NCBI GenBank assembly: GCA_023078555.1
Contig: CM041196.1
Location: 992,001 to 1,056,000, forward strand
Source: Ulva prolifera
Taxonomy: Eukaryota; Chlorophyta; Ulvophyceae; Ulvales; Ulvaceae
Direction: 5' to 3'
DNA: 64,000 nucleotides
Shown here one piece after another: positions 4,928 to 62,892 of the stretch (position 1 is the first letter of the stretch; each line of letters opens with the position of its first letter). The translations under genes were made by a program, and so were the position numbers. The notes beneath the pieces are model-generated. The model worked only from the letters and a program-made list of their open reading frames with translations, was not told the origin of the DNA and made no database searches.

Positions 4928-7900
4928 ATGACAGAGGCAGGCTTGGCTCAGCCGGCACGGGCTCCCGTCGACCCCGTGCTGGCTTGGCGATCGGGAGCAG
5001 CGCCAGCATCATTCGACACCGTGCAGCAAGGTGGCGGGCTCTACCAGCTCGTGGCAATTCGTCAAGAGACACAAGACCATTCATTCGTACGCTTGCCCTG
5101 ACTTTTGGCCCCTGTCGGTCCCTGCGCATGGCTATCCTGTATCGATGTGTGTCAGCACGCAGCACGCTCGCAGCCAACACGACGCCGTCGATGCTGAATG
5201 GCGAAGCTTGCAGCGCTAGCGCTGGTTCCAGAAGTGTGAACAGTTTACGGCAACCTACTGATCACTCGAGTGGACCTTTGGGTCACGAGTGGAGGTTTGC
5301 GGTATTTAGGTCAATGTGAGTATGCGCGTGCGGCCGCGGGTTTCAGGTTCCTGTGCATGCTTCACTGGCGATCTGAGCCACTTCTTTCGATCAGGCGTGA
5401 GGATGCCGTGTTCATGCGGCAGCACCTCAAGCGTCGCCATTTCGATCTGTGACGGCGTCGGCATGCAATCGGGCCATGCGCGCATGACCGACTTGCTGCG
5501 CAGCCATGCTGAGCGCCATTTGCAATTGAAAGGCTGCCAACGCTATCATGTCAACGACGTCTGCGCATGCACTGCACCTGCATAGACAGGCAATGGCCTT
5601 GAGCACAATGTCTCCTTAATCACGCGCATGCATGCGCGCCTCGATGTGTGCAGTGCTAGTTGTACAGAGTTGTACGTCAGGCAGGTAGGACTGCTTGAAC
5701 CGCACAATAATACAGCACCACGAAGCCATATTGCAGCCGGTATTTGTTACGGAATAAATCAAAGCCACCGTAGGACATTGTACATGTATGTCGGTGGACA
5801 AGCTTTCGATGTGATCGATCAGCTCTAAAAAAAATGCTGACCCATAACCGAAGCCATCGCGATACGTATATGTCGCCAATGCCGTCGTCGATTTCATTTT
5901 TCATGTTCCATAACGCCTTGTTACGTCGAGGAAGAATCGCACGTCTTGACCGGTACGTCGACGCAAGCGCGGGCAAGACCTGGGCAGTCTACAGTCTGTG
6001 CGAAAACACGCCATGCTCAATAAGATGATAATGTATACGATAGCATGGGATATGCAGGTATCAAAGCCGGTCGCTATCGTTGAAGAGTTCGCACGTCTGT
6101 GCAATGCTGTCGCGACCAGCTCTTTCGACAAGAACACGCGTGCTGTGGATTTTGGACGGCTGGACGACACAAAGCTCAAGGCTACAGCTTTTTTTGGGTA
6201 TAATGACGACGTCTGGAGGGCGCTGCTGAACGCTGGTACGCTCTGCGCAGCTTCAAGACTTGCAAGCAGATCCCTGATCCGGATCTGTCACACCACGCGA
6301 TGCACGCGTCACTTCACGCACACATGTGTAAAAGAAAGGGTTCCATGCTAGTGTTCTGCAAGGGTAGGTGCACATTGTCCATGCAAATGCTGCCACCTCT
6401 TGCAGCCTCAGTGAAGCCACTGTCTTGTTAAGCACGGCACTTATGGAGCAACACTGCTTTCAATCCATACCAAAGATCTGCGCATGACAATATCTCATCA
6501 ACCTGGACAGTGCGCAATTGCGTTTCGGCCCCAAGCTGCTGGTTTTCCGTCAGTGACAGTGCTTGATACACCCCTCTCACGGATCCCAGACGTTTCCACC
6601 ATGTCTGCTTGACTGCATCCTCTTATAATTACGCGTGTCAACAGATTCAGTAAGTGGAAGCTCCTGTACCTGACCTCAGGGTGCAAGAGGGTCACAGCAG
6701 TGCTGTCACAGCATCGCTCTCGTGCTGTGGGTGATGCCGCAGTTTGCTCAGCTCAATTAATGCTGAGATGCCTGAATCCTGCAGACGGTGTCAGAAATCA
6801 ATGCTCGGTGCTGGTGTCCTGTACTGTTGTGACCGACTGCGAATGGATAGTAGAGATGATCTGATCGTGGTCAATGCTTCGGGAAACAACATGCCATTGG
6901 TTCCTGTCCAGTAGCACAGACAGGGGCGGAAAGATACTGCACCAAATGCTGGAGACAATGTTTGAGAGTCCGACTGACTGGTTAAGGTGACTGTGCATGC
7001 TCGACATGTATGTAGCCAGTGCTGCGCTGTGTGTCGACGTGTTTCCGGCACCGTACATTCGTAAATACCACAATGTCAGCATTAGAGATGCAAAGCTACA
7101 TTCCGATCTACTGTGCACATGCAAGACTGATAACTTTCTGGAGCAGGGGTCAACCTAGCCAACAATGGATGGTGGTGGTCAGTCTATGCATCATGCGCCT
7201 CAAAACGAAGGCACACAGGCGGCTACAGACCTCGTCTGCATGTAGCACGCACATGTGTGGAAGCATTGACGGACCCCGAACTCACAGAGCCTGTTGCCGA
7301 AGCTTGACGCTGGGTGACCGCTGTGTATGCTGGTGCTGCAACACTCGCAGTCCATGGCATGCAGGATTGAAGCCCGGCGCAGTGGCGCGGGAGGATCTGC
7401 AGGAGGGGCTGCTTGTGTTCTGCCCTTGGCTCGCCGAAGAGGGGCAGTCTGATGCTGATGCAGCGTCGACCGACTCGTGGGAGCTCGGTGGCATGGACAC
7501 TCTCGATGCTGGCAGTGGCGCCCTCTCGGAGGTGCGGGGCGCATCAAGGCATCGTGATGCCATCACTCTGGCTGCAGCCCTGCAGTATCACAGCCGGTGC
7601 TAACCCGGTGGCTGCCTTGTGCCCTCCCAAACTGCAGTCTCACTTCTGTCATTTACCAACTTGTCATCAGTTGTCAAAATGCCAATGGACAAGGTTTTCA
7701 GGCTCGACGAAATTCAGGTGCGGCAGGTGGTTTATCAGCCTACGTAGTAATATGGTGCACGGGCGCAGAAATTGGTTCCCCCCACTCGAATACACACAGA
7801 TCTCACTCCCCGTTGTACTAGCAGCCGGTTATTGTGATGAATCGTTCAGGCCATGGCACAGGGCAGAAACATCAATCTATCCAAAGCCAAGTGAGCTGGT

Positions 7901-10900
7901 CATTCTGGCAGTCATGTTCATAGCACCCACACCGGAAGACCCAGTTGGTTCATGCAGGACTGCCAGAGGGTGTATCTTGCGGCATGGGCTGGTGATGCTG
8001 CGCGCACGCCGACCATCTACCCGCCTTTCAACCTCACACTCCGCCTTCTCGTCGCCCTATGCCAGGAAATCATCATTCCCGTGTCGCTTGAGGCCGCGGC
8101 GGCCTTCGACGAGTCCCAGAAGCCGTTTGAGTCGGGGGAGGGCATCACGGAGGACTACTCGGTGCAGCAGCACACCTCCGCCAACACCGCCCTCCAGGTG
8201 CTCGCCCGACTTTTTCATTGCTTGAGAGCTGGGCTCTCACCGATGTCCATGCTCCCTCTTGTACATGTGCCCAGGTGGACGAGATGGCACCGCTGTAGCT
8301 AGCTGTCCATAGTGCCGTGTCTTGACTATGTGTGGTGCCTGTAGCTGACAGTGTGAGCACTGCATGGTCCTGGTTACACCACAGGAATGTGATTGATCAT
8401 AATGCGCTTCGTTCATGCCTTGGCATGTACCCACATTGTTCAGATCGCACAGGTGCAGTTGGGTATATACGAACAGTATGCTGCAGATTCAAACGTGCAA
8501 GAAGCTTGTTGTCAATGTTGACCCGAGGCTTTGGCAACGTGGGGCCCCTCGCGACGCGATCTTCGATATCATTCCTGCTCAGATCGGCATGCACTGGCAC
8601 AGCGCCTCAAAGGGCGCGGCGCTGGTGTCTACATACCATGCAACTCTGAGAGCCATGCGGACCGAAATGTGCGTGGTGCCAGGCACCAATGCTCTGGACC
8701 TGAAGAAGCACAAGGCGAGTCTACTTTCACTGTTGCACAGATATTGACACTGGCAGCAGGCAAAGCCTGCTTGTGATAAGTTGCACACACTGCTGTCCGG
8801 TGTCTGCCTGGGCCTTGGGCGCTTTGGGGTCACCACAAAATGCTACAGCACTGGTCCGGAAGCAGATGTACACATCTGACTCATGCGCCAGCGCAGGGCC
8901 TGACATTGAATTCATGTGCTGGATTGTAATGCACTGGCTGTTGACTTCTGTTGGAGTCTCAGCATGCTTCTCAAGCACTCAGCATGATTGTCCGACTCTG
9001 TGGTCTTGGCTACGTTCGGGGTGCCTTGCTTTCTCAAGTTTTGAATTGACCTTAGTATGCATGAGGTCTGACTTGGCCTATGTAGATCTGCCTGGACGAA
9101 CGCCTCCTTGGAAGGCTGCATCAACAAATGGGTGAGCTACGGAGGCGTCTGCACAGCTGCATGCCTCCGCCCGGCATGAGCGCTCATGACCGTGGCAGGG
9201 CGGAGGTGGTGGCATTCTTCAGCGCAGTGCTGAGAACCCCCGCCGTGCTGCTGCTACAGCACTGGCAGCCTGAGGTCTTCTCGACTCACCGTCAAGAACT
9301 TGCCGCCCTACAACAGGATGTCACCAAGATTGTTTCTGAGCTGCAGCAACGAGGTCATCAGAGCAAACGGCCGTCCGCTGAGTCAGAGCAGCTGTTGCAG
9401 GGTGTGTCGTCGCTACAACTGCGCCTGACGGCGATGTGCACATTTGGTTGTACGCTGTGGCAAGCGCATGCGCCACTGGTTCAGTAATTGTAGCATGTGA
9501 CCCGAGCACGTATTTGGCAATCTCACTTTCTTGCTCATTCATGCGATCGACCAGAATGGATAGGTGTGCATGTCCGGTGTGCACTTTGACTCACACGCCT
9601 GGGCATGTGCATACATTGGAAATGCGAGTACCGCTCATGGCAGGCGCATGCTGCCGGCCGCGCGGCCAGATCATGCGCCTGCACAATGATGCTCCCACGG
9701 GTACAATGACTGTCGGAATCTTGTTGAACACCTAGCGTTCTGGCTACGGTGGGCATTACAACCGTGTGATACATTATGCAGAGTACATCACAGAAGCCAC
9801 AAAAGGGATGATGCAGCGCTGGTTTCCAAGCAACAGCATGCAACCTGATACTGGAAATCCCGTCGCAGCGGAATCTTCCAGGGACTCGCATATAAGTCAG
9901 ACTGCGCGTGATGCGCCCATGTTTGACTACCGTGCTGCTGTCAAAGGAGGTGAGTCTGCCGTCCCCAATGCGAAGGTCATGCGTCCTTCTCTTCAAGAAC
10001 AGATGGGAGCTGCCAGCATATCCGATGCCTTTCCAAAGATGCACGTGCTGGAGGCTAAAGAGAGGCAAATGCAATCAGAGCTAGGTGGACTGCTCGACAG
10101 GTGATGCTTTCATGCATGTGGTGATCCGTTACAGGATATCAAGCTGGTTTCATGTACATGTGTGGTTGTCCAACTCAGTCCCGGGCTCCACCAAGGGTTG
10201 AGGCACTGCCTGCGTAGTAGTGATCCCAAGATATATATAGCCAGTCGTACGTCCCCACACGGCGATCCTGTTGCAGCTGGGCAGCTAAAGGCGGCCCCAC
10301 GCCGGGATGCTGCCTGCATTGGATTTCATGTGATACGGTCCGTCTTTTGTAGGATGTGATGTGCGTTCGTGTTCGTCTTCTGCTCTTGGTGCCCGGACAT
10401 TGCGCTGTGCTGCGGCCTGTGCATTTATCACATGGGTGAAGCGTCAATTCCGTTCGCGTGGGCTTTTCTTAGAAGTCCTTTGCGAGCCTGTGGCCAATCT
10501 GACCTGATCAGGTCAGGCCTGACTGACACGACTTGGCTTCCAGACAGCATTGCTGATTCAGATACATCACGACCGCACCGTGGACCAGCCATAGCCAGTT
10601 AGTTTCAGAAGACTGCAGTCAAGAAACTTGTAGTGCTGTCTGTACGAAACAAATGTGACAGCCGTCGTCCGTAGGCATGCCAGACGCAGTGCCTCGCGGG
10701 TAACGCCAGCAACGGTGATGTGGCAAGCAATAGCTGTTGATTACCGCCCCCCATGTGCTACAGGCGATTTATCATGCAGCAGCTAGCACACCCCTTTGCT
10801 TGGGAAGCCCTGGTAAGAGGTGCCCTCCCACCACGTACACAAGTTTCGCAGACGGGCCTGCAGGAGGAGCTTGTGCGGATTGCATGCAACGGCATCCAGA

Positions 10901-13900
10901 AGTACATGCGCAATAGAAAACTGAGCTCACAGCTAGCGCAGCTTGGAATCAGCAGGCCGATGACGCTCTACATCACTAGCGGAGAGGTAGTGGATGAAAC
11001 TCGTAAAAACCTGGTTTCCGAAGATGGAAAGCCAACCAAGGCCATGAAGGCTCTGTTGAGGAAGCATCCACACTCGTTTGAAATCATCTCACTGGTAGCA
11101 GCCAAAAGCCTTGCATCAGTGGTGAGAGACCGATCGGATGCTGGACGCCGCCGTCACGATGTCACATGTACGCTCCTCTTACCTCCCCCACGAAGTTTGC
11201 ATGAATTTCACCGTGAGCTTCTGCTTGCGACTGCCGTATATACATATATGGCCTGCTCATGCTGTTGTTGTCTGATCAGCTGTGCGGAATTCGTTGCTGC
11301 ACTATGTGGTAGGTACGGCGGCCGCAGGCAACAGCACAGGGGTGTGACGGCTGCACATAAGCCAAAATCATGCATGTTGGCTTCGGCATGTGTGACGCCA
11401 ACATGCCAAAGTGTGTTCAGCATCTTCAACACACTTGTTCTGTGTGTGCTGAAGGCGCTGGCTGTTGTTTATGTTCGGATGTATGCTTTGGTACATAATG
11501 AGTCCAATCTTTCTCTGGCGACTTTCACAAATGCCGGATAACGTTGATGTAAATGTATTCTCAGCCTCAGAACAATGGATCGTTCAAGCTGCTCCTGCGT
11601 GCAGCCTTGCTGAATCTGGCAGTCGAGGGAATTGCTGCTTGGGTGGAATTTGACATGGTGACATCAGTTAGGGATGAGATGATCATGTTTTGCGAAGGGT
11701 CCGTCTCCGCGCTTTCCTTGTTCATCCCTGATGCACAGCATTGTGTTGGGACCAGGACCGGGACCAAGGCCACAACAGTTCAGAGAGAAGCAATGCGCGC
11801 TGGCTTCAGCAGGTATGCATGCTGATTGCCTTCGCTGCAGCTGCTGCTGCATATCAAATTGTGATGTGTGGAGTGTTACCAAGAGAGATCACATGGAACA
11901 CCGAGTTGTGACAACATCCTCACGTTGGGCACAGCAGCTCTCATGATCATCCACAAAAAACAACTGCATCCTGTACAGTGCATTACAGTTTCTATGTTTG
12001 GGCGACCGCGCGAATGTCTGTCTCCATGCTGCTGCTCGTACGTTGCACATGATGGGCATGTACGCTGCCTATGTACAGCTTGTACGTGTGCGCAGTTCAG
12101 CGCAGCCTGCTGATGTAGTTCAATGTGGACATGAACACAGCACCGGCTACAGGGTAGGGTAAACACTACTTTGTTCGCTGCGTGGCAGCAGAAGCTGAAG
12201 TGAACTCATCAGATATGGCTTCACTAGCAATGTCCTAGGTGTTTCATGCTAGTCTGTGTGCTCTGCTGAGCCATGATTAATCGTGAAGGAAAACGAAACT
12301 CTGATGATGGCTCTGTCTATTGTCTACTTGCTTGTGTAACTGTGAAGGGCTGATGCCGTGAGTTTGCGGCGGTATGCTCATGTTGATGTTCATGGCTGCA
12401 CGGCTCTCTTGCTGTGGCACCTTGTCATTGTATGTCCCTTGCGTGCGTTGTTCTGTCTTCCAGCTGCCTGCACATTGGCAGAATGTTCAAGGCTGTATGC
12501 ACATGCCCTGAATGTATGTAAAGCAAAGTAAATCTGAATTTACAGAGCCGTATCCTATATGCATGCCCCGAATGCATATAGTTACAAAGCCTGGCATAGA
12601 GCTGGTTCTCGGAATCCGCTCGCAAACCTACTCACTCATTCATGGCACTAGGCCGGGCATGGGCGCGTGCCACAGCCGTGCCGGTAATTCCAGCCAAATA
12701 TTGAAGCCCCGCACAGAGCTCATAAGCATTCCTATTGCACAACGCCACATTCAACCGGCGCAAAGCATTCTGAATGCATGTATGTATGTACGATCGCGGT
12801 ACAGTGCACATTGGTGACTTTGAAGTTAGGGTGTGGGCGTGTATGCGGTGCCGCATTCGTGCTCAGTGTTCCCTGTAGTGCCCCCTTCTTCTCTGCCTCG
12901 GACAATGTAGCCAAGTTGCTGAATAGACGAGAGGGCGCACACGGTCAGAAGGCATGATATCGATCGATGTCCCCTGATTGTGCATGGGGGACTCTGCACT
13001 GCACAGCTGGCCGCTCAAGGCTCGTTCGTAGTGCAGGGATAAGATTCTGCAGGAGACACTGGTGGCTGCGGTGGTGCCACAGCACGTGCCGCCGCCATAC
13101 AGTGACTTCTTTGATCCAGAGGACATGCTTCTTCATGGAGTGCAGCATGCCTTGAAGCGTGCACAGGAGAAATACACCACTCACAACTCTGAGGCTGTGA
13201 ACAGCCGACGCGGCTTTCTCAGTTGGATCCCGAATCTCCGGCGAAGCGAAGGTGATATGGCTGCTCCGCTTGATGCAGCGGGAGTGCTGGCAAGAAGTCA
13301 GGAGCACGCGCGAATGCTTCTTCGCTGCCAAGTGGATACTGTCGAGCGCATGCTCGGGCTGCCGCTGCTGCAGCAAATAATTCATGTGTCCTTCACCAGG
13401 CTGTTGGCAGCTTTGATAGCGGCGCCCCCCAAAGCATTTTCAGGCACGCGTGCAGGTGTGATTGCTAAACCTTGGGCTTTCCTGTTGCCATCTCGTCTGG
13501 CGTGTGCTGTGGTACAACTGAAGGTGCCACCTTCCGCATCAGAACCTTGCAAACGGTTCCAGAAAATTCAGTTGCTGAGAGCTCTCGAGGCAAATGCATG
13601 TACTGCCGTGATCAGACTCGAAGTGTCATCTCTACAGATTGAGACCGAGCAACACTGAGGTGTCCCTACCACTGGTGCCTTCAATATTTGTTCCCTGCAC
13701 TGTCAGTGATGTTGGGTGTCTGGGGGTATGGGTTGGCTGCATCGTCTGTTACACTTTGATAGCACAACCTGAATACTGGTAGCCCAGATGATGGATCTTG
13801 CCACGGATGCTGGACTGGAACATCCATGCCCCATGTCCATGCACAGCCAGTCATCCGATGTGATTGAACACAGAGGAGCGTGTATACGCGGCGGCAGCAC

Positions 13901-51500: not shown

Positions 51501-54500
51501 CGATGCACAACCACTCTTTTGGCGGGCCCTGCAAGACCAGCCGATGCCAGATGAAGTTGCTCACCTCCCCTCAGATGTACGGCCACCCTTCCAATCGCAT
51601 TTGACACTGCAGTACAATTACAAAGCGGGTATCGTTGTTGTGCGCCAACATTGTTCCTATTGTATTCCGCACCAAATGTAGAACCAAATGCAGCTGCACT
51701 ATTCCCGACTTGTTGCATCTTTTGAGATACACGTTCGCAATGTAATTTGGTCGTGTACCTGCGCGAACAAGCATTCCAATGCCGAGGAGATCGTGGCGCC
51801 TTCACGATATCTTCATTTCTTGCATGTGATCATGATCACATGCATCCACTACAGCCGCAATGATGAGATATCATATTGCGGCTTGTGGTTTCTGCACATT
51901 GTACGTGATATGCATGTATGGTTTTGGTTGCTGTTCATGTGCGTTCTTTATCGGGCTTGCTTGTGCAACCTTGGACTTGCTATTACATGTGGCTAGCATG
52001 GGCAAATCAACCAAAGCTGTGGTTGATGAAGTTGCGTTTCACTAGGGGGGTGGGCACTCGGTCTGCATGCACGTCCACCGGGCGCGCGGGCACCTCAGAC
52101 CGCTCTGGAACACGCTTCAACGAGCTATTGACTGAGCAGAACAACCTGAATTGGTCTAAAGCATACTGGGCGAAACAGGTATGAACGCCCAGCGAAATGA
52201 GGGGTTCTTGACCCAAAGTGTTGTTTTGCCCAGCGCTTGCCCATTGTGCTCGGTGGGCCGAGAACACCTCGAAAACACCATAATATGTGTCACTGGTGAT
52301 GATTGTTAAATCAGCTGGTTGTTGAGTGTCCGTCTGACTTGACCGCACGGGTTGCGACGACTCGCCAGCGTGGCCACGGCAAGCGACCAGCTCGCCCGGG
52401 ATGATCAACACGATTAGGCATGTATTGCTGACTATAATGCCTGTTATCTAATCTACAAAGCATTTGTGTCAATCGGCCGGAAGAGGTTGATGAGGACACC
52501 ATCATGGCTTCGAGCTGAAAGCTCGATATCCAGACTCAACCAGCGCTAATTTTACGTGTCACTGTCCGATCAGTACCTAGCCACTAGGCAAGAAGCAGTC
52601 CGAATCTGGCCGTGGACCACTGGTTCTGAATTCACAAGATGGAAAGGCTGTGCTTAGGCCAAGCCTTCAGCGTTGATTTGGCGTGCAGTGCACAATGCCA
52701 TGAGAGTGACGCAGAACGCATGCTGCTTTGGTTTTCCCATGCCATGAAGTACCAGCTCTGTCTCACTGCGATACATCACCTGATGCATCAGACCTATGTC
52801 TCGTTCACAAAAAACAAACATGTCAGCACGCCTACATGTGCTCACGCCTGGAGTGGCCTGCAACAAAACATAGATGACTCCACACCGGACGTGAGAATTG
52901 ATAAGCCTCCAATTGAAAGACGCAGCAGCATCACATGGATTCATGGCATCTACACACGTATCTTGTGTCATGCAGAAGGCAGTCTGATTGTCACCCAACT
53001 GGATGTTTTCAGTGTCACACAACTGGAGCAAGACTCAGCTCCTAAACCACTAAGCCTTTGATACTGATGTGAGCAGCCAGCCATATACTGCTGACTCAGT
53101 CTGTGATCAGTGTTTTGATCAATGCACAATGCTTCCTAGGCTGAGCCATCGAGGCAGCGCAATTACATGAACGTCAGCATGAGAGCTCAAGACTTGACAT
53201 CACACTTCTACAAGGCTTATTTTGTTCAGTGTGGCTTCCAAGAAGGCTGCCGGTGGTGTGCAGCGAGCCATACATGTCACAACCGCGGCTGAACCGCCCA
53301 CATCACTGCCAAATACAAAAACAACATCATTATGGGCGAGGTACAACTAAAATGGATGTTCTGAGCCCATTGGGCGCGCGCTGGGCAGCGTTGGGCAAAA
53401 CGTGTCGTTATGTCCAGCCATGCATATGATTTTGACAGAAAAGTGCGACTTTGCCCAGCGACTAGAAACCAAGGTACAATGGCACCCAGGAGGGTCTAAT
53501 TAGTCTGTAGACGTTCCTAGTGCTTTCCAGAGCGTTGTGAGGTGCCCGCGCTCCCGGTGGACGTGCATGAGGGCTGAGTGCCCACCCCCATGTTTCACTG
53601 TGGTCAGTCCTCCTATACGAGGATAGAATATATTGCGTGACCCGCAACTAGCAATGGGGATGATGTTGCAGGGCACGCGCTTCACGGTCACGAGTGTGAA
53701 CAAGCGCACATATCTCCTTGCGGCATGTGGCACACAAGTGCTTGCTGTGGGTCTGACAATACAGAGTATCAACGTGGAGAACGCGCTCACGACACATGCC
53801 AGCATCAGCATCACGGCCGACGCGGCACCCGCAACCAACAAGATGCTGAACTACGTCCACACTTGCTGCGTCCGTTTCCCCCTCGACAACTGCATTGGGG
53901 TGGCGGAGGCATCACAACACGCCAAGAGCGAGTATGGCGCTTCAAGGTGCCGCAATGTACGCCTGCATGTGGCCACATGTGCGTCACCGCCTCGCTGCAT
54001 GAACTGATATTGAAGACTTGCTAGCCATGCTTGGCGAAAACATCTTAGTGCATCTAGAATGCTTATCTAACCGTTGCCGGTTGGACATCCTAGGTTAACG
54101 CCTTCAGTAATCTTCACAACATTGCTGATTTTTGTGTTGATTGGAGTTTTCTAATGAGGTCGATCTGAATGTGAGCGCCAAATCTCAATTGCTGTGGTCG
54201 CTCGGGGCCAACACCGTACACTCTAGCGCTAGCAAATCGGATATGTTCAGTATGCACACCAAGTAGAAGCTTACACGAACACATCTGGTGCCAAAAAAAA
54301 ATGTAATGTTAACTAGGGCAATGCTACGTGTAGTGGATCAAGATGCTGGACAGCGTATGAGCACATACATAGGAGAACTCGTCGACCATGCTCTGCAAGT
54401 TGCGTCTCAGAAGCCAGTAGGGAAGTTGCTGGCTGTGGAGGCATGTACATCAGCGAGTGCTGTGGAGGTCGTCGCTGCATATGCAGAGAGCGACAATGAG

Positions 54501-57500
54501 AAGCTTGGGGGATGGTTTCGAACAGCCATGTGCCTGCTGCCCTTGCAGATGTCACGGTACGGCCGCATAAGATCACCCAACCGTCGTGGCAGAGGCCTGC
54601 TGAATAGTGCTATTGCCAAGTATTTGTGTGCATGCGTGTTTGCGTGCGTGCGCGTGCGCGTGTGCGTGCGCGCCGGTGTCTGTGTTGTTCTTGTGCCCAT
54701 GTGTCCATGTATCCCTGTGACCCGGTGTGCCTGTGCTCCAGGGTACGGTGCATGCGCACACACAGCGTAGCACTGCTACTCAGTGGCACTGAGTAGTGCA
54801 TAAGTACCGGATGCGCAAACGCTGGCAGGGGCACTCGGTTGCATCTCGACAATGATACATGTATGTGCACAGGTGCACGGGGAATATGTTGGATCCTATG
54901 CATGACGGCGAGCCTCGTCGTGATGTCAACTCTGTCGCGGATGACGGCGACATCGACGGCATGGCGCGGGCGCTGCGTCTCGGCCTCTACGAGAGCGTCC
55001 TCGCCTCCCACACCGGGCCTGTCAAGTTCGTGTGCGCCCTCGGCCAGCAGAGCGTTGGCAAGTCGTACCAATTGAATCACCTCGGCGGCACTCTCTTCGA
55101 CGTCGCGGGCGGTCGCTGCACAGACGGTGTGTGGATATCGGTGCGATTCATGAGTGACGCCGGTGGAGCGGAGACAGCCGTGGTGTTTCTGGACTGCGAG
55201 GGCATTGGGTCGCCGCAGCGCCACGAGGTGGAGGACATGCTGCACTGCCTCCTTGTCGGTGCCGTGTCCAGCCTCACCATGTTCAAGACTCACTTTGCCT
55301 TCACCACGTGCGCCGCCCCCATGGCCGCTCCCATGGCCAACATGTAAAACGATGCCTTTAATATCATGCCGATAATGTGCTGTCGTTTGCTTTCAGCAAT
55401 AGCATGTATCACCTCGTTCTGTTTGTGTAGATTCTGCCGTTGTGTATTTATGTACCGACCCCTCGCGAACATCCGATTTGCAATGTAAAGCTGATAGAGG
55501 GGGGACTGAAACAAGCCGCTATGCTAATGATTGGGGCTGCCAACTTCCTATGCGACATGTAAAAAACACGAATATTTCTGTGTCACCCCGTGCACCAATT
55601 TAGACTTCGTGTAGCGCGTAAGGCATATCATACGTGCAGAGAGCTCTATGAAACTCTTAAACGGCTCAACAAGGGCGCAGAAAAGGTGGGTGACATCTGC
55701 GGTTCCTCCAACGGCCGACAAGCAGGTATGGGTGCAAGCACCTCCTTGGCGCAGTTGATGCCCGTGGCGCCACCGGAAAAGCGGCGCGTGTTCCGCGGGA
55801 GCATCATGTTCTGCCTGAAGGATGTGCCCGCCGATTCGATGCGGAGCACCATCCGGGATTTTAAGGCCCCTTTAGACTCCATGGTCCGAAGTGGGGACAA
55901 CTTTGTATCTGCAATATATAACAACAAGCTATCAGTGTCGGCGTTCCCGGGTCTCTCTCCAGCATTTTATTCAACTTTGCAGAAGGTATGCGGATATTCA
56001 CACAATAGCTTACGGTGGGGTTGTCATGTACACCAGCCGCGCATGCACGATCTGCTCCCAATTCTGTTATGCTCGATTGCATGTGAATTTAACTTGCGCA
56101 TTTATGGCCACATGCATGATAGCACCGAGAGTACGTCCGACACTATCTGCCTTCAACATCTTTTGCAGTCCAAGATCAGTCACGTGTGTAAATCAGAGCA
56201 TGCATGACAACTTTGCCGGGGGCAGGTATACTATAGTCACATGTATGAAGAGTCTGATGTTGCAAGAGGCGAGTGTGAAGCAATGATACGCTAAATATTG
56301 AGTTAACTTAAGGTTGCATGGGTGTAGGAGTGTGTTCCACGGTTGCAAAGTGCGAGTTGCCCGGCATATGCCAGCGGTGCAGACGCCATCTACACCTTAA
56401 AGCTGATGCTCATGAAGATGGCATACAAGGACTGGACAGCCATCGACCGACAGCTCATCGTGTCCAAGGCAAAGCGTCTGCGGGCGCTGATGCCGGCAGT
56501 GGTACATCACGGCTGCGAGGGCAGCCTGTCACCGGACGGATCTGCCCTCGATACTTCGCGCTTGCAGCTCGGTGCGTTGTCTAGAAGCCATGTGGGCTGC
56601 TAGCTCAATGATATTTGAGTGTTGTGCATGTGCGCGTGGGAGCTATCTGCTCACGGACGGTGGTTCAGAAGTGGCTTGCCTTGATTTGCATCGGTGTGTG
56701 AGAACGATGGTGTTCAGCATGCCTGCACTGCACACATACCGGCGCTGCATGGGCACCAAAGTGGCATCTTGAATAACTCACATTGTTTGATTGCCCAAGG
56801 GCAGACAGTGGCCGTGGGATCCAGCAGTGTCGCATGCTTGCGGTACGGTGTCATCTAAGTGTGCCGCTATGTCCATTTCTAGTCCACGCCGGTGCCTGCA
56901 TACACGGTGGGCAGCTGCCTCTTAACGGAAATCTCACTTAACAGTTTCATGAACTCAGCCGGGCACACACAGTGGTCATAGAACACATGCCACAGCCTTG
57001 TGCACGTGACTCATCACCACCGGGCTTAAACCTGGTGATCTATATCGCATGCTATAGTAGGCAGCACCGTGAATTCGTTAACCCTTGTGCCATATTAATG
57101 TTTCAAGACTGTAGTCCTGAGTTGCAGTTTCCAAATGCCAAGACGGTCAAGCGCCTGCAACAATCGACCTAGAGCTCGGGCCTCTGAGTGTGGCTGAATA
57201 GGCGGTGATGCCGCCGTGTCACAGGCACAAAAACTGATATTGTGATGCAGGGAGCAGCCGGGAAGGGATGTGTGTCCGTCAGGATGAGGTGGTGTTCGAC
57301 ATCCACCTACAACACGACGTCGTCGCGGCAGCCCAAGGCATGCTTGATCGCTTTCATGATGCTGGCTACTTGGAGATCCACCACCACATACAGGCATCGA
57401 GCCTGCCTGAATTCTCGCGCAACGGTGCCGACTTGCTGCCGTTCAGCAACTCAAAGGCGGGTGCGCAGGCTCCGCCTGCTTTGTGCTCTGAAGAACACAC

Positions 57501-60500
57501 ACCTATGGACAGCGATGATGCCGGAGCCTTCGGCGCAGAGAAGGCTCTTGCAGAGTCAGACGCCGATGGTACAGGTTTAAGGAAGTCAGAGGAACATGAT
57601 ACAAGCTCTGAGGATGAATGCAGCGAGGTAGCATCTCAAGCGGCATGCCTTGCCGCAGCCGCATCTGAGAGCATGCATGGGGGTGACCGCTGCAGCCTGG
57701 GGGCGCCAGAAGAAGCTGTAGACGCTGCCGTGGCTGCTTCAGGTGCACCGCTGAAGCGCAAGCGCACATCTGCAGCCCAGCGCTTCAGCAAGGTGCACCG
57801 GTCCTCCGCGGGAGAAAGCTTTGTAGTAGCGCACACAGCAGCGGCGCGGCCTTCGAGTGTACAGAGGCCATCCAGCGGCGTGATGCTGCGGTGGACTTTG
57901 AAGGTGTCGGACCACCAACTGCGACTCGGCAGCCTTGTGCAGGATCCTGCCGCCGCGGAGGGTGTGCTGCATGTGCCTGAGGCACTGCTGCAAGAGGACT
58001 TGCTGCGTCTACGGGTGATGATGCTTCATATGTGGGAGGAGGACAACATCGACAAAGACGCAAATCAGTTTAGGTGTGCAGCTGCTTGATGCGGCAACAT
58101 GTCTACATCATTACACGCTTTTTTGTATGAGTGACGTTCGCATGCACACTAGACCATGGTCTGCGCAATCACATAGCTTAAAGAGCATCGAAGCGGTGTG
58201 GATGTTGTATGCCGAAGGACAAGCCCTGGTAGCACACTGCGCATGCGTTGGCAGCTGAAGGGCAACAAGGTGTTGCTTGCTTGCTCTGAACCTGGGTCCA
58301 GTCTGATCCGCCGTCATTATACATGCATGTGTGAATGCAACCACAGTGACTCATAGCGAAGAAGCTGCAACTTGGGGGCCCCCACAGCAACTGCATTCAT
58401 TAAGCTCTCGCTGTAAGGGTGTACATGTGCAGGCTATTCCAGGCGGCGCTGAAAGGGCTTGTGCAGGGCCTGCTGCGCCGCCGCCGCGCGGTCGCGGCCG
58501 CATGGCTCGCGCAGGCCACGCAGGCGATCGCGGACACCCCCGAGGCCTCCGAGCTGCATTCCACCCTCGCCGACCACCTCCGCCGCCTCGATGCCACCTG
58601 GCAGGTCTGCGGCGCTACCTGCGCCGACTGCCTGCTGCCGTGCTGCGTGCTGGGCAGCCACGCACAGCACAGCTGCGGCACGGACCATCGGTGCAAGGCC
58701 GACTGCGCCTTCTGCAGTCTAGATCAGTCAGGCAGTGCAGAGCGGCATCAGTACAGCTGCAGCGGCAAGGCCGGCCACAACGGCCGCCACATGTGCAGCG
58801 ATAAGCCGCATGCATGCGGCAAGCCGTGCGCTCTGATGGGGCGTGCGCTAAACTGCAATGGCACATGCGCGAAGGAGCCACAACATGAAGGGGAGTGCGA
58901 CTGCGAGTGCAGCAACCACCTCTGCGGCGCCGCCTGCTCCCTCCCGGGCTGCGGCGCCCGTTGCAAGGAGCCCTGGGGAGCGCCCCACGAACTTCACAGC
59001 TGCGGAGCCTCTGCCTGCCCCACAGTGTGATACCCCCTTGCAGGAATGGCATGTAAGCACAACAGGCATTCCGCGTGACAGCGCTGCCTTGTTTGGGCCT
59101 TGGAAAGTCAAGCCTGCAATTGAACACTGTGAGTGTATGCGGCATCCACGTACATCTGCATATGCATGTGGGCCATGTCCACAGCGTGACATGATTGTGA
59201 GATCGGCTGCATTTGGCTGAGGCTCCGAGCAGCATGTGCCATGCATCGTTGCATACTACGGCTGGCAACATCATGTTCACCCGGAGCACTTGATACCGCT
59301 ATCGTAAATTATTATGATTCGTAATTCTCCAAATTTGCAGTATCAGCAGCGCAGGCATCGATTGCCTTATCCTCGCATGAACTGCCTGAAACTTGGCAAG
59401 ATGCTGGGCTCTGTCAAGCAGACATTGGCAAGTACAATACTTGTGTTCATCCTCACGGCCGGCTGTGCAGAAGTGCCCGCTTTGCGGAGGGGGCTGCCCT
59501 GGTGGACACTTACATGCATTGGAGGAGCCAGGGACAAACCACCTTTGCGGCGCGGAGCACCAGTGCATGCAGCCCGGCACGCTACAGCAGAGCCTCTGCA
59601 GCTGCGAGGGTGCCTGCAGCATCGAGGGTGAGATCGAGCGCGTGTCACGGCGATTCGAGGGCCGCCGCGACAAGTTTGAGTACGATGCGGTGACAGTACA
59701 GAACATGCACCGCAAAGTCTGCACGGTGAAGATCCCCCCCGGCCAGATGCGGCACGACGGCCCGTGCGGCTGCGGGCGGCTGGCGGAGGAGCACTACTGC
59801 GGGGCACCCTGCCCCCAGTGCCTCTACAGGTGCGAGGCCTGAAATCACTATAGGACGATGTTCACATTCTACAGCCATAAGCATTCTCCATATGAATGTG
59901 GTTTCGCTCGATCGCGCCTCTGCGGCGCAAACATCTCGTGATTTCCGTGTGTGCGTCTAGCACTGTAGATTGCTGAACACTGCATAGACTTTTGAAAGAA
60001 GGAGATTTTCATGGCTCCAGTGGAGTTCTCTGATTGCGCGTCACTCCGGCTCGTTTGCATGCCTCGCAGGCATTCTGAACTTGTGTGGTATCGAGTGACA
60101 GCGTCAGAATGATTTTTTGAGCGTGATCTCTGCAAGTCTCTGGAAAATGAGGCTGTTGATCATTTGAGGCCAGTGTGATGTGAGTCTCACGAACTTCTCT
60201 GCGTGTGCAGGTGTACCAAGGCCGCCGGCCACTCGGGCCGCCACCGGGCGCCTCACGGCAACCTCACAAACAGCCGGTTCGTGGCGACCCAGGGCGAATT
60301 CGATCTGAAAGGCCGCAAGTGCGCTTTGATCGCTCCTTTGCATGCAGAGTCAGCATAATGCAATTTACGCAGGCAGCATATCCACCTGGCATCCGCATGT
60401 GCTCCCAGGTCCACACAGATGCTGACAGGATGGCTTGGGCAGGGTGACCGTGTACACAGCAGGAATGCAAGCAACATCCCCATCCTGATTCTATTTGAAA

Positions 60501-62892
60501 TTATGGAAGCAGGGTCGTCTCTGCAGCGTGTCCAAGCTGATGCAAACATCACTGCAAGGGCCCGTGGCATTGCATCACTCTTAGATAACCAGCCTGTACA
60601 GCACCGCCAAAGACAACAAACATCATGGCTTCCTGCAGAGGTTCAAAATTGGGCGGCTGGCCGCACCCGAGACGAGTGCAACGCTGCAGGTACGCCATCG
60701 GAGACTCTGCAGAGGCGGAGACGTGCGACAGCTTCTGCAGCAGCTGCGGCCGCGGCCACGTGCACACCGTGCGCTGCGACAAGAAGCTCTGCAGCAGCGC
60801 CCTCCACGACAACGTCCGCCACTGCAACCGGGCCATGGCCAGTGCTGAGCCAGGCGCTGCCGCTGCCATCGACGCTGACGGCTGCGGCGATGCTGACCGT
60901 GACCGCGCAGAGGCGGTCGAGTTTGATGAGTTCACTCACGACTTCTTCTGGGAGCACATGCAGTTTGAGGACCCTGTCCAGTCGGAGGAGGAGCGGCGGC
61001 TGTTCCGCATCTGCGGCTGCTGCTGTGGCAGTGAGGAGCATGAGAAGGTGGGGTGGCTGACCACAGTTCATCTTTCCTGTACCACTTGACTGTCAGCTAT
61101 GCACGCATGCCCCTCACATCTTCTGGATGCCTGGAGATGCAATGGCATGCAGCCTGTACCTGCCTAACTTGGCCTAGCATGTGCATGCCTGTGGTCTCAC
61201 CAGTGCATGGAGCGGTGTTGCAATGAATGCAGGCTGATGGCACGTGGGAGGAGAAACACTGCCTGTTGCCAATCTGGCACGCCCCGGTGGGCCCGAACGA
61301 CGCGAGTGCTCACAAGCCCTCTGATGTGGCACACGTCCATGTCAGCGACACTGGCTGCCTGTTCCCGTGCAAGTGCGTCTCCTGCAACTGCCACCCTCTG
61401 TCTTCTGTGAACCTGTAAGAAAGTCTGAATGAACCTGTGAACACTTTTCACTCCTGCACATTAATTCGCGTTTGCGAATTCGCGAGCAGCTGCGCATAAT
61501 AATCGTGCACCAGTATGGGAGTGTACATGTGTATTGACCCAAATGCAAGCGGAAAAGGGGCGAAACATATTGTCATGTCAGCTAAGCCTCAGGACAGGTC
61601 CCTAACGAGAACTATTTCTTGTCTGCGTATACCCAATGACCTGACAGCCTGACTGGTGCCTGCTATGTAGCGTGTACAATACCAGCTACCCTTCAGTGCT
61701 TGCAGTGCCTGCCCTGCTTGTAGTGCATGGTGCTTATGTCAGTGTGAAGTTCTAGAATTCTATTCTACTGGAAAAATCTAGAATTGATGAGGCATTCAAC
61801 GCAGCTGAAGGGCGTGATAGCCCTTGTAACTGCGCACAGTGCTAGCGGCTGCTACGCGGAACTTTGCAGTGAGTATTGCTTAGACTTTAGCTGGTGCTGC
61901 ATCTGTTCGATCAATCCCAACAGGTCAGCCGCGGGTGATCGGGAAAGAAACAAGCTGATGAGATCGTTGCCATGCAGGCATTTCAATGGATCGACGACGC
62001 ACACGTTCCTGGTCATCGACCGCTCTGGCAGCATGAGATCGAGGGTCATCACCCCCGACAGCAGCGACATCCGGGAGCATGAGGCCTTCAGACACGGCCG
62101 CCTCGACAACGTGCTCGGCGTCGTGTACGAGGCCGCTCACAAGTACGTCCTCGAGCGGGCCTCCAAGTCACAGGAGGAGCTGTTCACTTTCATCCCCTTC
62201 TCATCAGACGCTGAGATCAAGTTCTTCGCCAAAGGTGCCGCAGACGGCAATGTGGCCGGCCTGCTCGATGAGTTCATGGAGTGCCCTCCAGAGAGAGGCA
62301 CCAATTTCTACAAAGCTCTGCAGAAGACGAAACTCGCCGTGAACGAGGTGCGGCAGCCCCACACTTCAGCAGGTTTGCGTACGGCTTGTCCAGCTTGATG
62401 CCACGCCTACTTTGTCCAAGCTATGTCCATCTACCGGGCCTGATTCAAATCGCGTTATCGCAATAGTTGACACACAAGTAGCCTCCGGCTGCACATGCAT
62501 GCCCGCAGTCGCAGCTGCAACTGAGAATGGGGCAGTCACTAAGGGTACATACCATGCAGTGGCGCATCCAAGGCAGGGGGAGCCACAAGCCGGTGGTGAT
62601 CCTGCTCACAGACAGCGAGGACTTCTCCAGGAAGGAGAGCACAGCACTGATGCGGAAGATCATGGCCGGTGAGCAGAGCCTGCCGGAGGCAGAGCAGCTG
62701 GCATTCCACTTCATCGGGTTTGGGCCTGGTGTCGATGAAGAGTACATCCGCAAGCTGGCGAGCATTGGCAACGGCAGCCACATGACGTGCCTTGCAGCCA
62801 ACGACATGGACCGCGTGACCCTCGTGAAAGCCTTCAGCCGCATCGCAGCGCGGCCGGCGCTGCAGGTCGCGCTGACGCCCCACAAGCCATGA
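27529..62892 (+). CDS. Giant GBP/VLIG-like GTPase with Cys/His-rich region and C-terminal VWA domain, copy 2
   Basis: Exons: 27529-27705, 29320-29497, 30156-30310, 37819-38070, 41369-41644, 42148-42460, about 43040-43193 (5' part only, 3' end unresolved), 45093-45532, 46159-46384, 46750-47201, 48516-48821, 50190-50332, 50634-50984, 51304-51576, 53672-53978, 54334-54556, 54873-55307, 55640-55985, 56328-56571, 57251-58073, 58433-59024, 59471-59829, 60211-60318, 60690-61047, 61233-61372, 61978-62347, 62560-62892. Each has the phase of its copy 1 counterpart, and several have the same length (178, 143, 273, 592, 359 and 108 nt). Without exon 7 they total 8,180 nt, about 2,730 residues. Exon 7 must restore the frame (length one more than a multiple of three); its start, with MVQTW against MMQRW in copy 1, fits, but the end does not resolve. 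P-loop, DxxG and MIDAS are intact. The gene lies head-to-tail 793 bp after copy 1. Much larger introns, full of repeats, stretch it to 35 kb. Intron 13 uses a GC donor. Start: one of two adjacent ATGs at 27529 and 27532. Confidence 0.8.
28255..28300 (-). repeat. Short SINE/LINE tail, minus strand
   Basis: Contains CAAGTAAATCTGAATTTACT and GAGCCGTATC, the reverse of the tail shared by the LINE and SINE copies of this window. Only the terminal 45 or so bases are clear. Confidence 0.5.
28737..29000 (-). mobile_element. SINE-like element with LINE-type tail in copy 2 intron 1
   Basis: Read on the minus strand, a head region (about 28,910-29,000) includes GGGATCGATTCTG, which fits the RNA polymerase III B-box consensus GWTCRANNC, preceded by a small hairpin CCTCC/GGAGG. 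A body of about 130 bp follows, then GGAGTTGTCAATGTCC, GGATACGGCTCAG, TAAATTCAGATTTACTTTAC and further TTTAC units. The tail is shared with the LINE copy at 12.5 kb. A polymerase III head with a LINE-type tail is the usual SINE plan. The A box is not convincing, so the tRNA origin is only suggested. Confidence 0.5.
30517..30605 (+). repeat. 30-bp tandem repeat, three copies
   Basis: Units of the form GGAATGTCC(T/G/A)ATGGCTTCC followed by TTGGTGGCCGC repeat three times with single-base differences. Confidence 0.85.
31070..31160 (+). repeat. Tandem 46-bp repeat with inverted-repeat core
   Basis: Two units centred on AATGGTCGGTG and CACCGACCATT arms separated by CCT. A degraded version lies just upstream at about 31012-31045. 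The arms resemble those of the large array at 34.6-35.7 kb (AATGGTTGGTGG). Confidence 0.8.
31167..31280 (+). other. Exon-like block in intron 3 (possible nested gene, first exon)
   Basis: A 38-codon frame starting with ATG (MHALVTTAVSMDSPRALHLA) runs into a good donor, AAT before GTAAGC. It has no counterpart in copy 1. It could begin a nested gene on the same strand or be a relic of a captured fragment. No homology is recognised. Confidence 0.3.
31577..32345 (+). repeat. 94-bp minisatellite, about eight copies
   Basis: Units contain GATGGGCAGCA, CACTGTCA, CCCCGCTGCACTGCGTG, GGGGGCAGAGGGGGTA and ACAGCACAGAA. GATGGGCAGCA-type words mark copies near 31629, 31719, 31818, 31912, 32013, 32107, 32203 and 32297. 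Two subtypes alternate in blocks (GAGCTGCGGCAGC versus GTGCTTCGGCAAC), indicating homogenisation of neighbouring units. Long frames in all directions here are products of the repeat length and are not genes. Confidence 0.9.
33418..33484 (+). other. Exon-like block in intron 3 (possible nested gene, internal exon)
   Basis: Bounded by CTTGCAG and by a GTAAGC donor. In one frame it reads QLLEVIAVRLRVSNKLTFLE, a regular protein-like sequence. The phases of this block and the one at 31167 do not join directly, so at least one piece is missing or the set is not a gene. Confidence 0.3.
33545..33585. repeat. Two overlapping perfect palindromes
   Basis: A 26-bp palindrome (33545-33570, arms CATTGTGGTGCGC) is followed, sharing three bases, by an 18-bp palindrome (33568-33585, ATGCCAGGCGCCTGGCAT). 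Both have no spacer. They could extrude as adjacent hairpins or mark ends of inserted repeats. Confidence 0.85.
34346..34396 (+). other. Exon-like block in intron 3 (possible nested gene, internal exon)
   Basis: After GATAG the frame LMHIAFPKRHAEYICTI runs for 17 codons to ATC before GTAAGT, the ideal donor. It can be joined in phase 0 to the frame at 35786. Support is limited to splice words and frame. Confidence 0.3.
34557..35665. repeat. 16-copy array built on a 25-bp palindrome
   Basis: Each unit has the arms AATGGTTGGTGG and CCACCAACCATT with a single C between them. Sixteen copies run from about 34587 to 35650 at spacings of roughly 60-73 bp. One copy (near 35005) lacks the central pair and one (near 35430) has GGCC altered to GGGCC; all others keep the palindrome exactly. 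Two linker types alternate: one with CCGGGGAGCCTGGATCATGA, the other with GTGCGCCGCGCCGTGCATGG and ATGCTTACATACATGACT. The result is a higher-order repeat. The palindrome is conserved far better than the linkers. Confidence 0.95.
35786..36016 (+). other. Exon-like block in intron 3 (possible nested gene, last exon)
   Basis: An acceptor CATGCAG at 35785 opens a 76-codon frame to TAG at 36014-36016. The product includes MKPAAQWAQEDGLYVADYEY and KFILGALKMEGTAESPLHPI and ends in a basic segment. It reads like a real protein and has no counterpart in copy 1. I do not recognise the family. It is the best piece of the possible nested gene. Confidence 0.4.
36510..36880. repeat. Region rich in TTCCGG/CCGGAA and GAACGTTCC words
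   Basis: Words such as CTTCCGGG, CCGGAACG, GGAAACGTTCCGG and GCGGATCC recur every few tens of bases on both strands. A related cluster lies at about 30420-30485. No clean repeat unit could be defined. Confidence 0.4.
38629..38728 (+). repeat. GTGCGT/ATGCGT microsatellite
   Basis: About 100 bp of hexamers (GTGCGT with GTGCAT and GTATGC variants) in copy 2 intron 4, about 105 bp before a hAT-like element. Confidence 0.9.
38835..40710. mobile_element. hAT-like element 1 with ~260-bp terminal inverted repeats (copy 2 intron 4)
   Basis: The left end starts CAGGGGTGTCTGCAC, the right end closes with GTGCAGACCCCCC. The inverted repeats extend about 260 bp, including ACGTCCACCGGGAACGCGAG on both sides. 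A perfect 8-bp target duplication, TCATATAG, flanks the element at 38827-38834 and 40711-40718. The CAGGGGTG terminus and 8-bp duplication point to hAT. The 1.3-kb interior has no recognisable transposase, so the element is non-autonomous. The repeats contain many CGCCCA/TGGGCG words. Confidence 0.85.
42022..42053. repeat. 32-bp perfect palindrome upstream of copy 2 exon 6
   Basis: Arms ATTGGAGACAAACTAT meet their exact inverted complement without a spacer. It lies about 95 bp before the acceptor of exon 6. Confidence 0.9.
42675..43010 (+). mobile_element. LINE 3' fragment in copy 2 intron 6
   Basis: Contains the C-terminal coding block seen at 2040-2249 (GVFVTDALRQFVPAECGVV and a closing NGAMNE stop at 42935) followed by a 3' UTR with CCTTTGTAAG and a short tail. 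It lies immediately upstream of the presumed exon 7 acceptor at 43039. It is 5'-truncated and in the same orientation as the host gene. Confidence 0.75.
44310..44370 (-). repeat. Short dispersed-repeat tail, minus strand
   Basis: The reverse complement reads GCTGTTTTCGCGGTGCCGCC and then CACCTCGCC, close to the stretch at 28530-28560 on the plus strand. It seems to be the 3' end of a non-LTR repeat family seen at least five times in the window. Confidence 0.35.
47760..48440 (+). repeat. Diverged direct repeat in copy 2 intron 10
   Basis: Two blocks, about 47760-47875 and 48328-48440, share in order GTCTAGGTCT, CACCCCGAAAA, a TACCTAGA-type word and AACCCA followed by an ACGCGTT/TACGTGTT word. 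They are moderately diverged and may be ends of one element or two copies of a repeat. Confidence 0.45.
47885..47922. repeat. AT-rich palindrome of about 38 bp
   Basis: Arms AATTTGGTATGGTATATAT mirror each other around an AT-alternating centre. Sequences of this kind extrude cruciforms easily. It lies in copy 2 intron 10. Confidence 0.85.
50634..51303 (+). other. Copy 2 exon 13 and its GC-AG intron
   Basis: The exon (50634-50984) ends AACAAG and the intron starts GCATGA; the copy 1 equivalent has GACAAG before GTGCGG. No GT lies nearby that would keep the frame, and read-through would meet a stop at once. The intron ends CATGCAG at 51303. Confidence 0.65.
52043..53590. mobile_element. hAT-like element 2 with long terminal inverted repeats (copy 2 intron 14)
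   Basis: The left end TAGGGGGGTGGGCACTC and the right end GAGTGCCCACCCCCA are inverted copies, and the repeats extend more than 200 bp, including ACGTCCACCGGG. The flanks carry GTTTCAC on both sides (CGTTTCAC at 52035-52042, TGTTTCAC at 53591-53598), a near-perfect 8-bp duplication. Terminal and internal words (GACGCAGAACGCATGCTG here, GATGCAGAGCGCATGCTG in element 1) show it belongs to the same family. No transposase was recognised. Confidence 0.8.
54627..54680 (+). repeat. GTGCGT-rich simple repeat
   Basis: Short run of GTGCGT/GCGTGC words in copy 2 intron 17, less regular than the one at 38.6 kb. Confidence 0.7.
54873..56571 (+). other. Copy 2 exons 18-20: GBP/VLIG-like GTPase domain
   Basis: Almost the same as copy 1. 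The P-loop is GQQSVGKS, switch region GRCTDGVWIS, DxxG motif FLDCEGIGS, and the KD motif sits in GSIMFCLKDVPADSMRS. Exons are 435, 346 and 244 nt against 432, 343 and 247 in copy 1. All residues expected to contact nucleotide and Mg2+ are kept, so this copy is predicted to be active. Confidence 0.85.
57251..58073 (+). other. Copy 2 exon 21: acidic linker, shorter than in copy 1
   Basis: Starts with a hydrophobic piece (VVFDIHLQHDVVAAAQGML) that parallels copy 1 and ends with the shared HQLRLGSLVQDPAAAEGV segment. The middle is Ser, Asp, Glu and Ala-rich with a basic patch (APLKRKRTSAAQRFSKVHRS) that could act as a nuclear localisation signal; copy 1 has no such patch. Confidence 0.7.
58433..61372 (+). 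other. Copy 2 exons 22-26: Cys/His-rich zinc-binding-like region
   Basis: The clusters match copy 1 one for one (HSCGTDHRCKADCAFC, HNGRHMCSDKPHACGKPC, CDCECSNHLCGAACSLPGC, CPLCGGGCPGGHLHA, HYCGAPCPQCLYRC, CDSFCSSCGRGHVHTVRCDK). Exons 22, 23 and 24 have the same lengths as in copy 1. Exon 25 is 42 nt longer, with added acidic and alanine residues. Confidence 0.75.
61978..62892 (+). other. Copy 2 exons 27-28: C-terminal VWA domain with MIDAS
   Basis: DRSGSM, the threonine in RGTNFYKAL and the aspartate in VVILLTDSED form a complete MIDAS. The end, FGPGVDEEYIRKLASIGNGS and KAFSRIAARPALQVALTPHK, is close to copy 1. The stop TGA is at 62890-62892. The intron position and phase match copy 1. Confidence 0.9.

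What the first reader, a model, noticed from the sequence alone, without database searches (positions are those of the whole stretch)
4928..62892. Tandem pair of giant GTPase-Cys/His-VWA genes
Two head-to-tail genes of about 2,800 residues each combine a GBP/VLIG-like GTPase, a long Cys/His-rich region and a C-terminal MIDAS VWA domain. Seen in the sequence: shared exon order, matching phases and conserved motifs. Known: GBP and VLIG GTPases assemble on membranes or pathogens in animals, and intracellular VWA domains often serve remodelling complexes. Inference: this could be an algal large-GTPase system, perhaps in defence or trafficking. I know no named family with this order.
Basis: partly seen in the sequence, partly recalled or inferred. 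Interest (0 to 1): 0.8.

Follow-up and report, generated by a model that had tools for sequence, protein, structure and literature searches.

The report
Green-algal giant GTPase–zinc–VWA gene trio
A green alga appears to carry three side-by-side copies of a giant gene that joins an animal-immunity-like GTPase, a cysteine/histidine-rich region of no known family and a VWA domain; what it does is untested.

Summary
Genes A (4928-26735) and B (27529-62892) can be modelled as head-to-tail multi-exon genes of about 2,750-2,900 residues. A third copy, C, follows at genome C1:1057745-1075111. Four protein queries covering the architecture matched only this cluster in the 88.9 Mb assembly at E <= 0.001. 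Of 28 modelled introns in A, 18 match B or C in position and phase, 11 both. The G domain scores best against Pfam URGCP_GTPase, below its cut-off in all three copies; it passes the GBP cut-off only in C. The C-terminal domain passes VWA_2 only in C; MIDAS residues are intact in all three. The region between has 48 invariant Cys and 26 invariant His and no Pfam match. dN/dS is below 1. Nuclear rbcS supports a green alga. Best guess: a GBP/GVIN-like GTPase that assembles on a target, with the VWA docking a partner; a defence role is inference. Structure prediction was off and no eukaryotic protein database was available, so novelty is provisional.

The parts
4928..26735 (+). Gene A, conceptual model of 26-32 exons, 2,749-2,903 aa by setting
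27529..62892 (+). Gene B, conceptual model of 30-34 exons, 2,766-2,859 aa by setting; exons between 30.9 and 37.5 kb uncertain
4928..8197 (+). Gene A N-terminal block (LYQLV..R.E.QD.SF, VSKPVAIV.EF.R.CN, PPFNLTLRLL), no Pfam match
27529..38070 (+). Gene B N-terminal block; end set by eye at a GT matching A and C (the model ends this exon at 38142)
8487..14212 (+). Gene A poorly conserved stretch (26-29% identity between copies at aa 495-812 of the model), no Pfam match for the part scanned
41369..48821 (+). Gene B poorly conserved stretch
14800..16875 (+). Gene A middle domain (WEPESL.VATAGKQWLCTPC), no family found
50190..53978 (+). Gene B middle domain
17721..20125 (+). Gene A large GTPase domain with flanking segments: P-loop GQQSTGKS, DCEG, LKD
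54334..56571 (+). Gene B large GTPase domain: P-loop GQQSVGKS
20417..21506 (+). Gene A variable linker (33-44% identity between copies), ending in a conserved segment HELRLGS...DKDANEFR
57251..58073 (+). Gene B variable linker
22125..25180 (+). Gene A Cys/His-rich region with three HxG...C / HxCGxxC units
58433..61414 (+). Gene B Cys/His-rich region
25598..26735 (+). Gene A C-terminal VWA domain with MIDAS (DRSGS, T, TDSED), two exons
61978..62892 (+). Gene B C-terminal VWA domain with MIDAS, two exons

Best explanation
Three tandem green-algal genes encode giant, probably cytosolic GTPases of the GB1/RHD3 (GBP-GVIN) branch of the dynamin superfamily. Most likely the G domain binds GTP, dimerises and drives assembly of many molecules into a coat or scaffold on a membrane or intruder. 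The N-terminal, middle and Cys/His (zinc-array) regions choose the target. The C-terminal VWA, through its MIDAS metal, holds a peptide of a partner. Shown here: gene order, domain anatomy, conserved motifs, three copies, dN/dS below 1. Inferred: GTP-driven assembly, zinc binding, target choice, VWA partner, and any role in cell-autonomous defence.
For: Profile matches to URGCP_GTPase (E 9.6e-10 in A, 2.5e-7 in B, 5.5e-9 in C), to GBP (C 24.8 bits, above cut-off 21.1) and to solved GBP1/2/5 chains (best E 1.2e-4). P-loop, DCEG and LKD kept in 3 of 3 copies. VWA_2 above cut-off in C (33.0 vs 27), MIDAS residues in 3 of 3. 48 Cys and 26 His invariant between columns 59 and 539 of the three-copy alignment. 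dN/dS 0.16-0.36 in the GTPase block, 0.24-0.33 in the Cys/His block. Hardly any membrane-span-strength stretch. GVIN1 and GBP1 form coats on bacteria (PMC11974893, abstract and passages). vWA MIDAS sites bind peptides (PMC7159879, passages).
Against: No structure, expression or biochemical data. The profile matches cover only about 73-105 residues of the G domain. URGCP cut-off (55) is missed by all three (38.2, 30.2, 35.7), the GBP cut-off by A (19.9) and B (17.0), the VWA_2 cut-off by A and B (24.5 each). Whole-genome searches with the Pfam VWA and GBP families listed no hit in A or B. No C-terminal CaaX box. Only one P-loop, while GVIN1 is predicted to have two large-GTPase domains (PMC11974893, passages). 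Of ten flank frames scanned, the only matches were a reverse transcriptase and a pyruvate kinase; nothing points to defence.
Confidence: 0.4

Rival explanations
1. A housekeeping membrane-remodelling GTPase, working like atlastin/RHD3 on the ER or another organelle.
For: Weak RHD3_GTPase matches (E 5.1e-5 in A, 3.6e-4 in B, 1.2e-4 in C); SEY1 (E 0.0011) among PDB matches.
Against: No hydrophobic hairpin: 19-residue hydropathy maxima are 1.79-1.94, and the windows over 1.8 lie in the N-terminal part of A and C. The genome has other GBP/atlastin-type matches at C3:10808k and C1:1973k.
Confidence: 0.2
2. A VWA-centred assembly or remodelling factor, working like midasin or the MoxR-vWA pairs, with the GTPase as the energy source.
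For: Intact MIDAS in 3 of 3 copies; intracellular vWA domains serve as co-chaperones of MoxR-type NTPases (PMC7159879, passages).
Against: The NTPase is a GB1/RHD3-type GTPase, not AAA+; the VWA block is less conserved (46-57%) than the GTPase (66-80%) and Cys/His (66-72%) blocks.
Confidence: 0.2
3. A nucleic-acid or ubiquitin-linked factor in which the Cys/His region is the active part and the GTPase regulates it.
For: The Cys/His region is among the most conserved parts (66-72% overall, 80% in one exon between A and B) with 48 invariant Cys.
Against: No RING, NFX1 or other zinc-finger family matched in Pfam at E up to 1 in A, B or C.
Confidence: 0.12
4. Each repeat unit is two or more genes rather than one giant gene (for instance an N-terminal gene and a GTPase-VWA gene), duplicated as a block.
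For: By the count no A intron between aa 133 and 659 of the model matches B or C; identity in part of this stretch is 26-29%.
Against: The N-terminal, middle, GTPase and Cys/His-VWA queries each match only in the three copies, in the same order. 16 of 19 A introns from aa 659 on match B or C. By eye, exon 4 ends at a GT at the same residue and phase in A, B and C, though the automatic count missed it.
Confidence: 0.15

Closest known systems
VLIG/GVIN/URGCP giant GTPases of animals (Pfam PF25683)
   Same: Best-scoring G-domain family in all three copies; giant size
   Different: Below the family's cut-off; one P-loop; Cys/His region and VWA added; many introns; green alga
Guanylate-binding proteins (Pfam PF02263), including plant GBPL and Dictyostelium Gnbp
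   Same: G1 to G3 region; copy C passes the Pfam cut-off
   Different: A and B miss the cut-off; about four times longer (GBP length recalled and seen in PDB rows); no CaaX; extra domains on both sides; this genome also has separate GBP-type matches
Bacterial NTPase-vWA conflict systems (PMC7159879, passages)
   Same: A nucleotide switch combined with a MIDAS vWA and, in GTPase-centred types, zinc ribbons
   Different: Different GTPases, separate genes in operons, no sequence relation shown; an analogy only
Midasin/MoxR-type intracellular VWA proteins
   Same: Intracellular MIDAS VWA working with an NTPase
   Different: GTPase instead of AAA+

Membership tests
GBP (PF02263) | Profile score above curated cut-off (21.1 bits) | tested here: inconclusive
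   C 24.8 met; A 19.9 and B 17.0 not met
GBP (PF02263) | P-loop and G3 motif D.EG (recalled) | tested here: met
   GQQSTGKS/GQQSVGKS/GPQSLGKS and DCEG in 3 of 3 copies
GBP (PF02263) | G4 motif with RD (recalled) | tested here: inconclusive
   Invariant CLKDV at about the right place; the alignments with GBP do not reach it
GBP (PF02263) | Helical C-terminal domain directly after the G domain | not testable with these tools
   Structure prediction switched off
VLIG/GVIN/URGCP (PF25683) | Profile score above curated cut-off (55 bits) | tested here: not met
   A 38.2, B 30.2, C 35.7; 29.7-37.3 by exon in the genome search
VLIG/GVIN/URGCP (PF25683) | Two large-GTPase domains, as predicted for GVIN1 (PMC11974893) | tested here: inconclusive
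   One P-loop per protein and no second GTPase match in the parts scanned; a degenerate domain without P-loop is not excluded
Atlastin/RHD3 | C-terminal transmembrane hairpin (recalled) | tested here: not met
   No 19-residue hydropathy window above 1.8 outside the N-terminal part; a simple scale only
VWA superfamily | Profile score above curated cut-off (VWA_2, 27 bits) | tested here: inconclusive
   C 33.0 met; A and B 24.5, just below
VWA superfamily | MIDAS DxSxS...T...D | tested here: met
   DRSGS/DRSGS/DRSSS, T, TD in 3 of 3

The most novel reading that the evidence does not exclude
A plant-lineage counterpart of the animal GVIN/GBP coat system: a self-contained, tandemly diversified, cell-autonomous defence GTPase whose zinc array and variable N-terminal half recognise intruders such as giant viruses or intracellular bacteria, and whose built-in VWA recruits the effector that in animals is a separate cofactor.
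Probability: 0.18. Interest if true: 0.85.

Novelty: new variant of a known kind. Interest (0 to 1): 0.52.

Why it matters
If the architecture and a defence role hold, GVIN/GBP-like giant GTPases would reach into the green lineage with target recognition, switch and partner docking in one polypeptide, and a tractable alga could test how such coats work without interferon-induced cofactors. Even without defence, it defines a conserved Cys/His region with no described family.

Tried and rejected
Relatives elsewhere: none confirmed in viral contigs with GTPase, Cys/His-VWA or middle-domain alignments, nor in prokaryotic genomes with the first two. These collections are viral and prokaryotic, and only two short peptide patterns per query are scanned, so this says little about novelty. 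PADLOC gave no match for the GTPase in 3 members. NCBIfam gave two families, each in 1 of 3 members, hCaCC (E 5e-4) and Cob-chelat-sub (E 0.003). PDB gave nothing for the middle domain at E up to 5, nothing better than E 0.22 for the N-terminal block, and complement factor B at E 0.07-0.1 for the Cys/His-VWA part. Pfam for the middle domain gave one match at E 0.29 in 1 of 3 members, taken as chance. My guess that the middle domain is a beta-propeller could not be tested. Decayed copies: rejected, since dN/dS is below 1 in the 17 of 21 block comparisons where it could be computed (dS saturated in the other 4); stop-free models alone are weak evidence because the builder forbids stops. TGTAA, the green-algal poly(A) signal (recalled), occurs once within 1,500 bases after each stop, which is about chance. 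My recollection that unnamed GTPase-VWA proteins may exist in fungal or oomycete databases is unverified and lowers the novelty score.

Full report
The observation. tblastn of the open frames of the left part against the right part gave collinear same-strand matches across the span, from which I picked 25 anchor pairs. A Viterbi model with codon preference, anchor bonus and splice scores gave gene A at 4928-26735 (32 exons, 2,903 aa) and gene B at 27529-62892 (34 exons, 2,859 aa). Stricter settings gave 26 and 30 exons, 2,749 and 2,766 aa, and with one more shared exon 29 and 31 exons, 2,833 and 2,847 aa. The builder forbids in-frame stops and favours TGCAG acceptors. Micro-exons are doubtful, and so are the B exons between 30.9 and 37.5 kb, where tandem repeats lie.

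A third copy. The assembly has 88.9 Mb in 44 contigs. A search with the GTPase gave 6 exon matches, all in one stretch of contig C1, two of them beyond the window. The Cys/His-VWA query gave 19 matches, the middle domain 11 and the N-terminal block 9, every listed one in this stretch. I fetched the flanks and modelled copy C; one model starts at window coordinate 64005 (2,547 aa), others at 65745 (2,428 aa by the printed count), ending at 83111. Alternative starts of C score almost alike. The locus is thus a trio. The tool scores only the best candidates, so distant copies could be missed; family searches with Pfam VWA (10 matches) listed none of the three copies, and with Pfam GBP (6 matches) only copy C.

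One gene per copy. Of 28 introns in the A model, 18 coincide with B or C within 2 alignment columns and in phase, 11 with both, 10 with neither. Anchors came from A-B matches, but splice sites were chosen for each copy alone. From aa 659 of A on, 16 of 19 match; before that, 2 of 9. By eye, exon 4 ends at a GT at the same residue and phase in all three copies, though the count scored it as unmatched. A separate N-terminal transcript is not excluded.

Domains. The G domain matches URGCP_GTPase (A 38.2, B 30.2, C 35.7 bits; cut-off 55), GBP (A 19.9, B 17.0, C 24.8; cut-off 21.1) and RHD3 (23.2, 20.4, 22.0; cut-off 42.4). The profile of the three copies finds 17 PDB sequences at E up to 1: GBP2 (best, E 1.2e-4), GBP5, GBP1, SEY1 and, at E 0.07-0.17, Era. 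P-loop, DCEG and CLKDV are kept in all three. The VWA matches VWA_2 (A and B 24.5, C 33.0 bits; cut-off 27), with MIDAS residues in 3 of 3. The region between has 48 invariant Cys and 26 invariant His between alignment columns 59 and 539, three HxG...C / HxCGxxC units per copy, and no Pfam match at E up to 1 in A, B or C. The N-terminal block, middle domain and poorly conserved stretch have no convincing family.

Selection. By Nei-Gojobori counts on the models dN/dS is 0.16-0.36 in the GTPase block, 0.24-0.33 in Cys/His, 0.36-0.46 in VWA, 0.23-0.40 in the middle and 0.48-0.51 in the linker. dS is 0.71-1.60 in the GTPase, Cys/His, VWA and linker blocks, so the copies are old and constrained; 4 of 21 comparisons, all toward the N-terminus, are saturated. 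Identity is 66-80% in the GTPase, 66-72% in Cys/His, 46-57% in VWA, 43-53% in the N-terminal block, 40-53% in the middle, 33-44% in the linker and 26-29% at A aa 495-812.

Organism. RuBisCO small-subunit exons (4 matches) lie on two large contigs, C1 and C9. Nuclear rbcS marks the green lineage (recalled), and the splice sites look chlorophyte (recalled). The species is not known to me. The genome has other GBP-type matches at C3:10808k and C1:1973k.

Mechanism. The anatomy suggests a nucleotide-driven assembling GTPase with a targeting front, a metal-bound array and a peptide-docking VWA. In human cells GVIN1 and GBP1 form coats on Burkholderia and need further cofactors (PMC11974893, abstract and passages). 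In Aureococcus a number of GBP-annotated genes fall after giant-virus infection and the authors suggest a defence network (PMC5917014, passages). Dictyostelium has a single GBP homologue of unknown role (PMC8565484, PMC5758549, passages). Bacterial conflict systems combine NTPases with MIDAS vWA domains, which bind peptides (PMC7159879, passages). These are analogies. Nothing here shows induction, assembly or defence.

Novelty. Ten paper searches gave no description of this architecture in the listings; five returned no paper, and four of the other five showed only the top 10-15 of 16 to 1,097. A term search in a review of plant GBPs found no mention of algae, VLIG or von Willebrand (PMC12489281; one passage seen). 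Without a eukaryotic protein database the claim stays provisional. I file it as a new variant of the large GB1/RHD3-type GTPases, not as a member of VLIG/GVIN, whose cut-off is not met, and only provisionally near GBP.

Noticed in passing
genome C1:1057745-1075111 (L037-L039), just right of the window: Third copy of the gene with all domains and MIDAS; its VWA exon model runs into a short WHEVVLL tandem repeat that is probably intronic.
   Followed up: yes
window 31574-32345 and 34540-35661: Long tandem arrays (94-base and 71-base units) inside stretches that B's model mostly treats as introns; they add to B's greater length.
   Followed up: no
window 2046-2336, 12587-12715 (-) and 42723-43022: A dispersed repeat with translated similarity in three places, in introns of both genes and upstream.
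   Followed up: no
window 2-1234: Open frame of 410 aa running off the left edge that reads like a retrotransposon product by eye; no Pfam match at E up to 0.01. About 15 kb upstream of the window, L042:1120-4926 (-) holds a reverse-transcriptase frame.
   Followed up: partly
genome C9:3966026-3971369: Three VWA matches within about 5 kb, another possible VWA cluster; no GTPase match of this kind there.
   Followed up: no
L039:4967-5941 (-): Pyruvate-kinase-like frame about 5 kb past copy C (30.5 bits, cut-off 30).
   Followed up: no
genome C3:10808001-10809094 and C1:1972161-1973700: Separate GBP/atlastin-type GTPase matches in the same alga.
   Followed up: no
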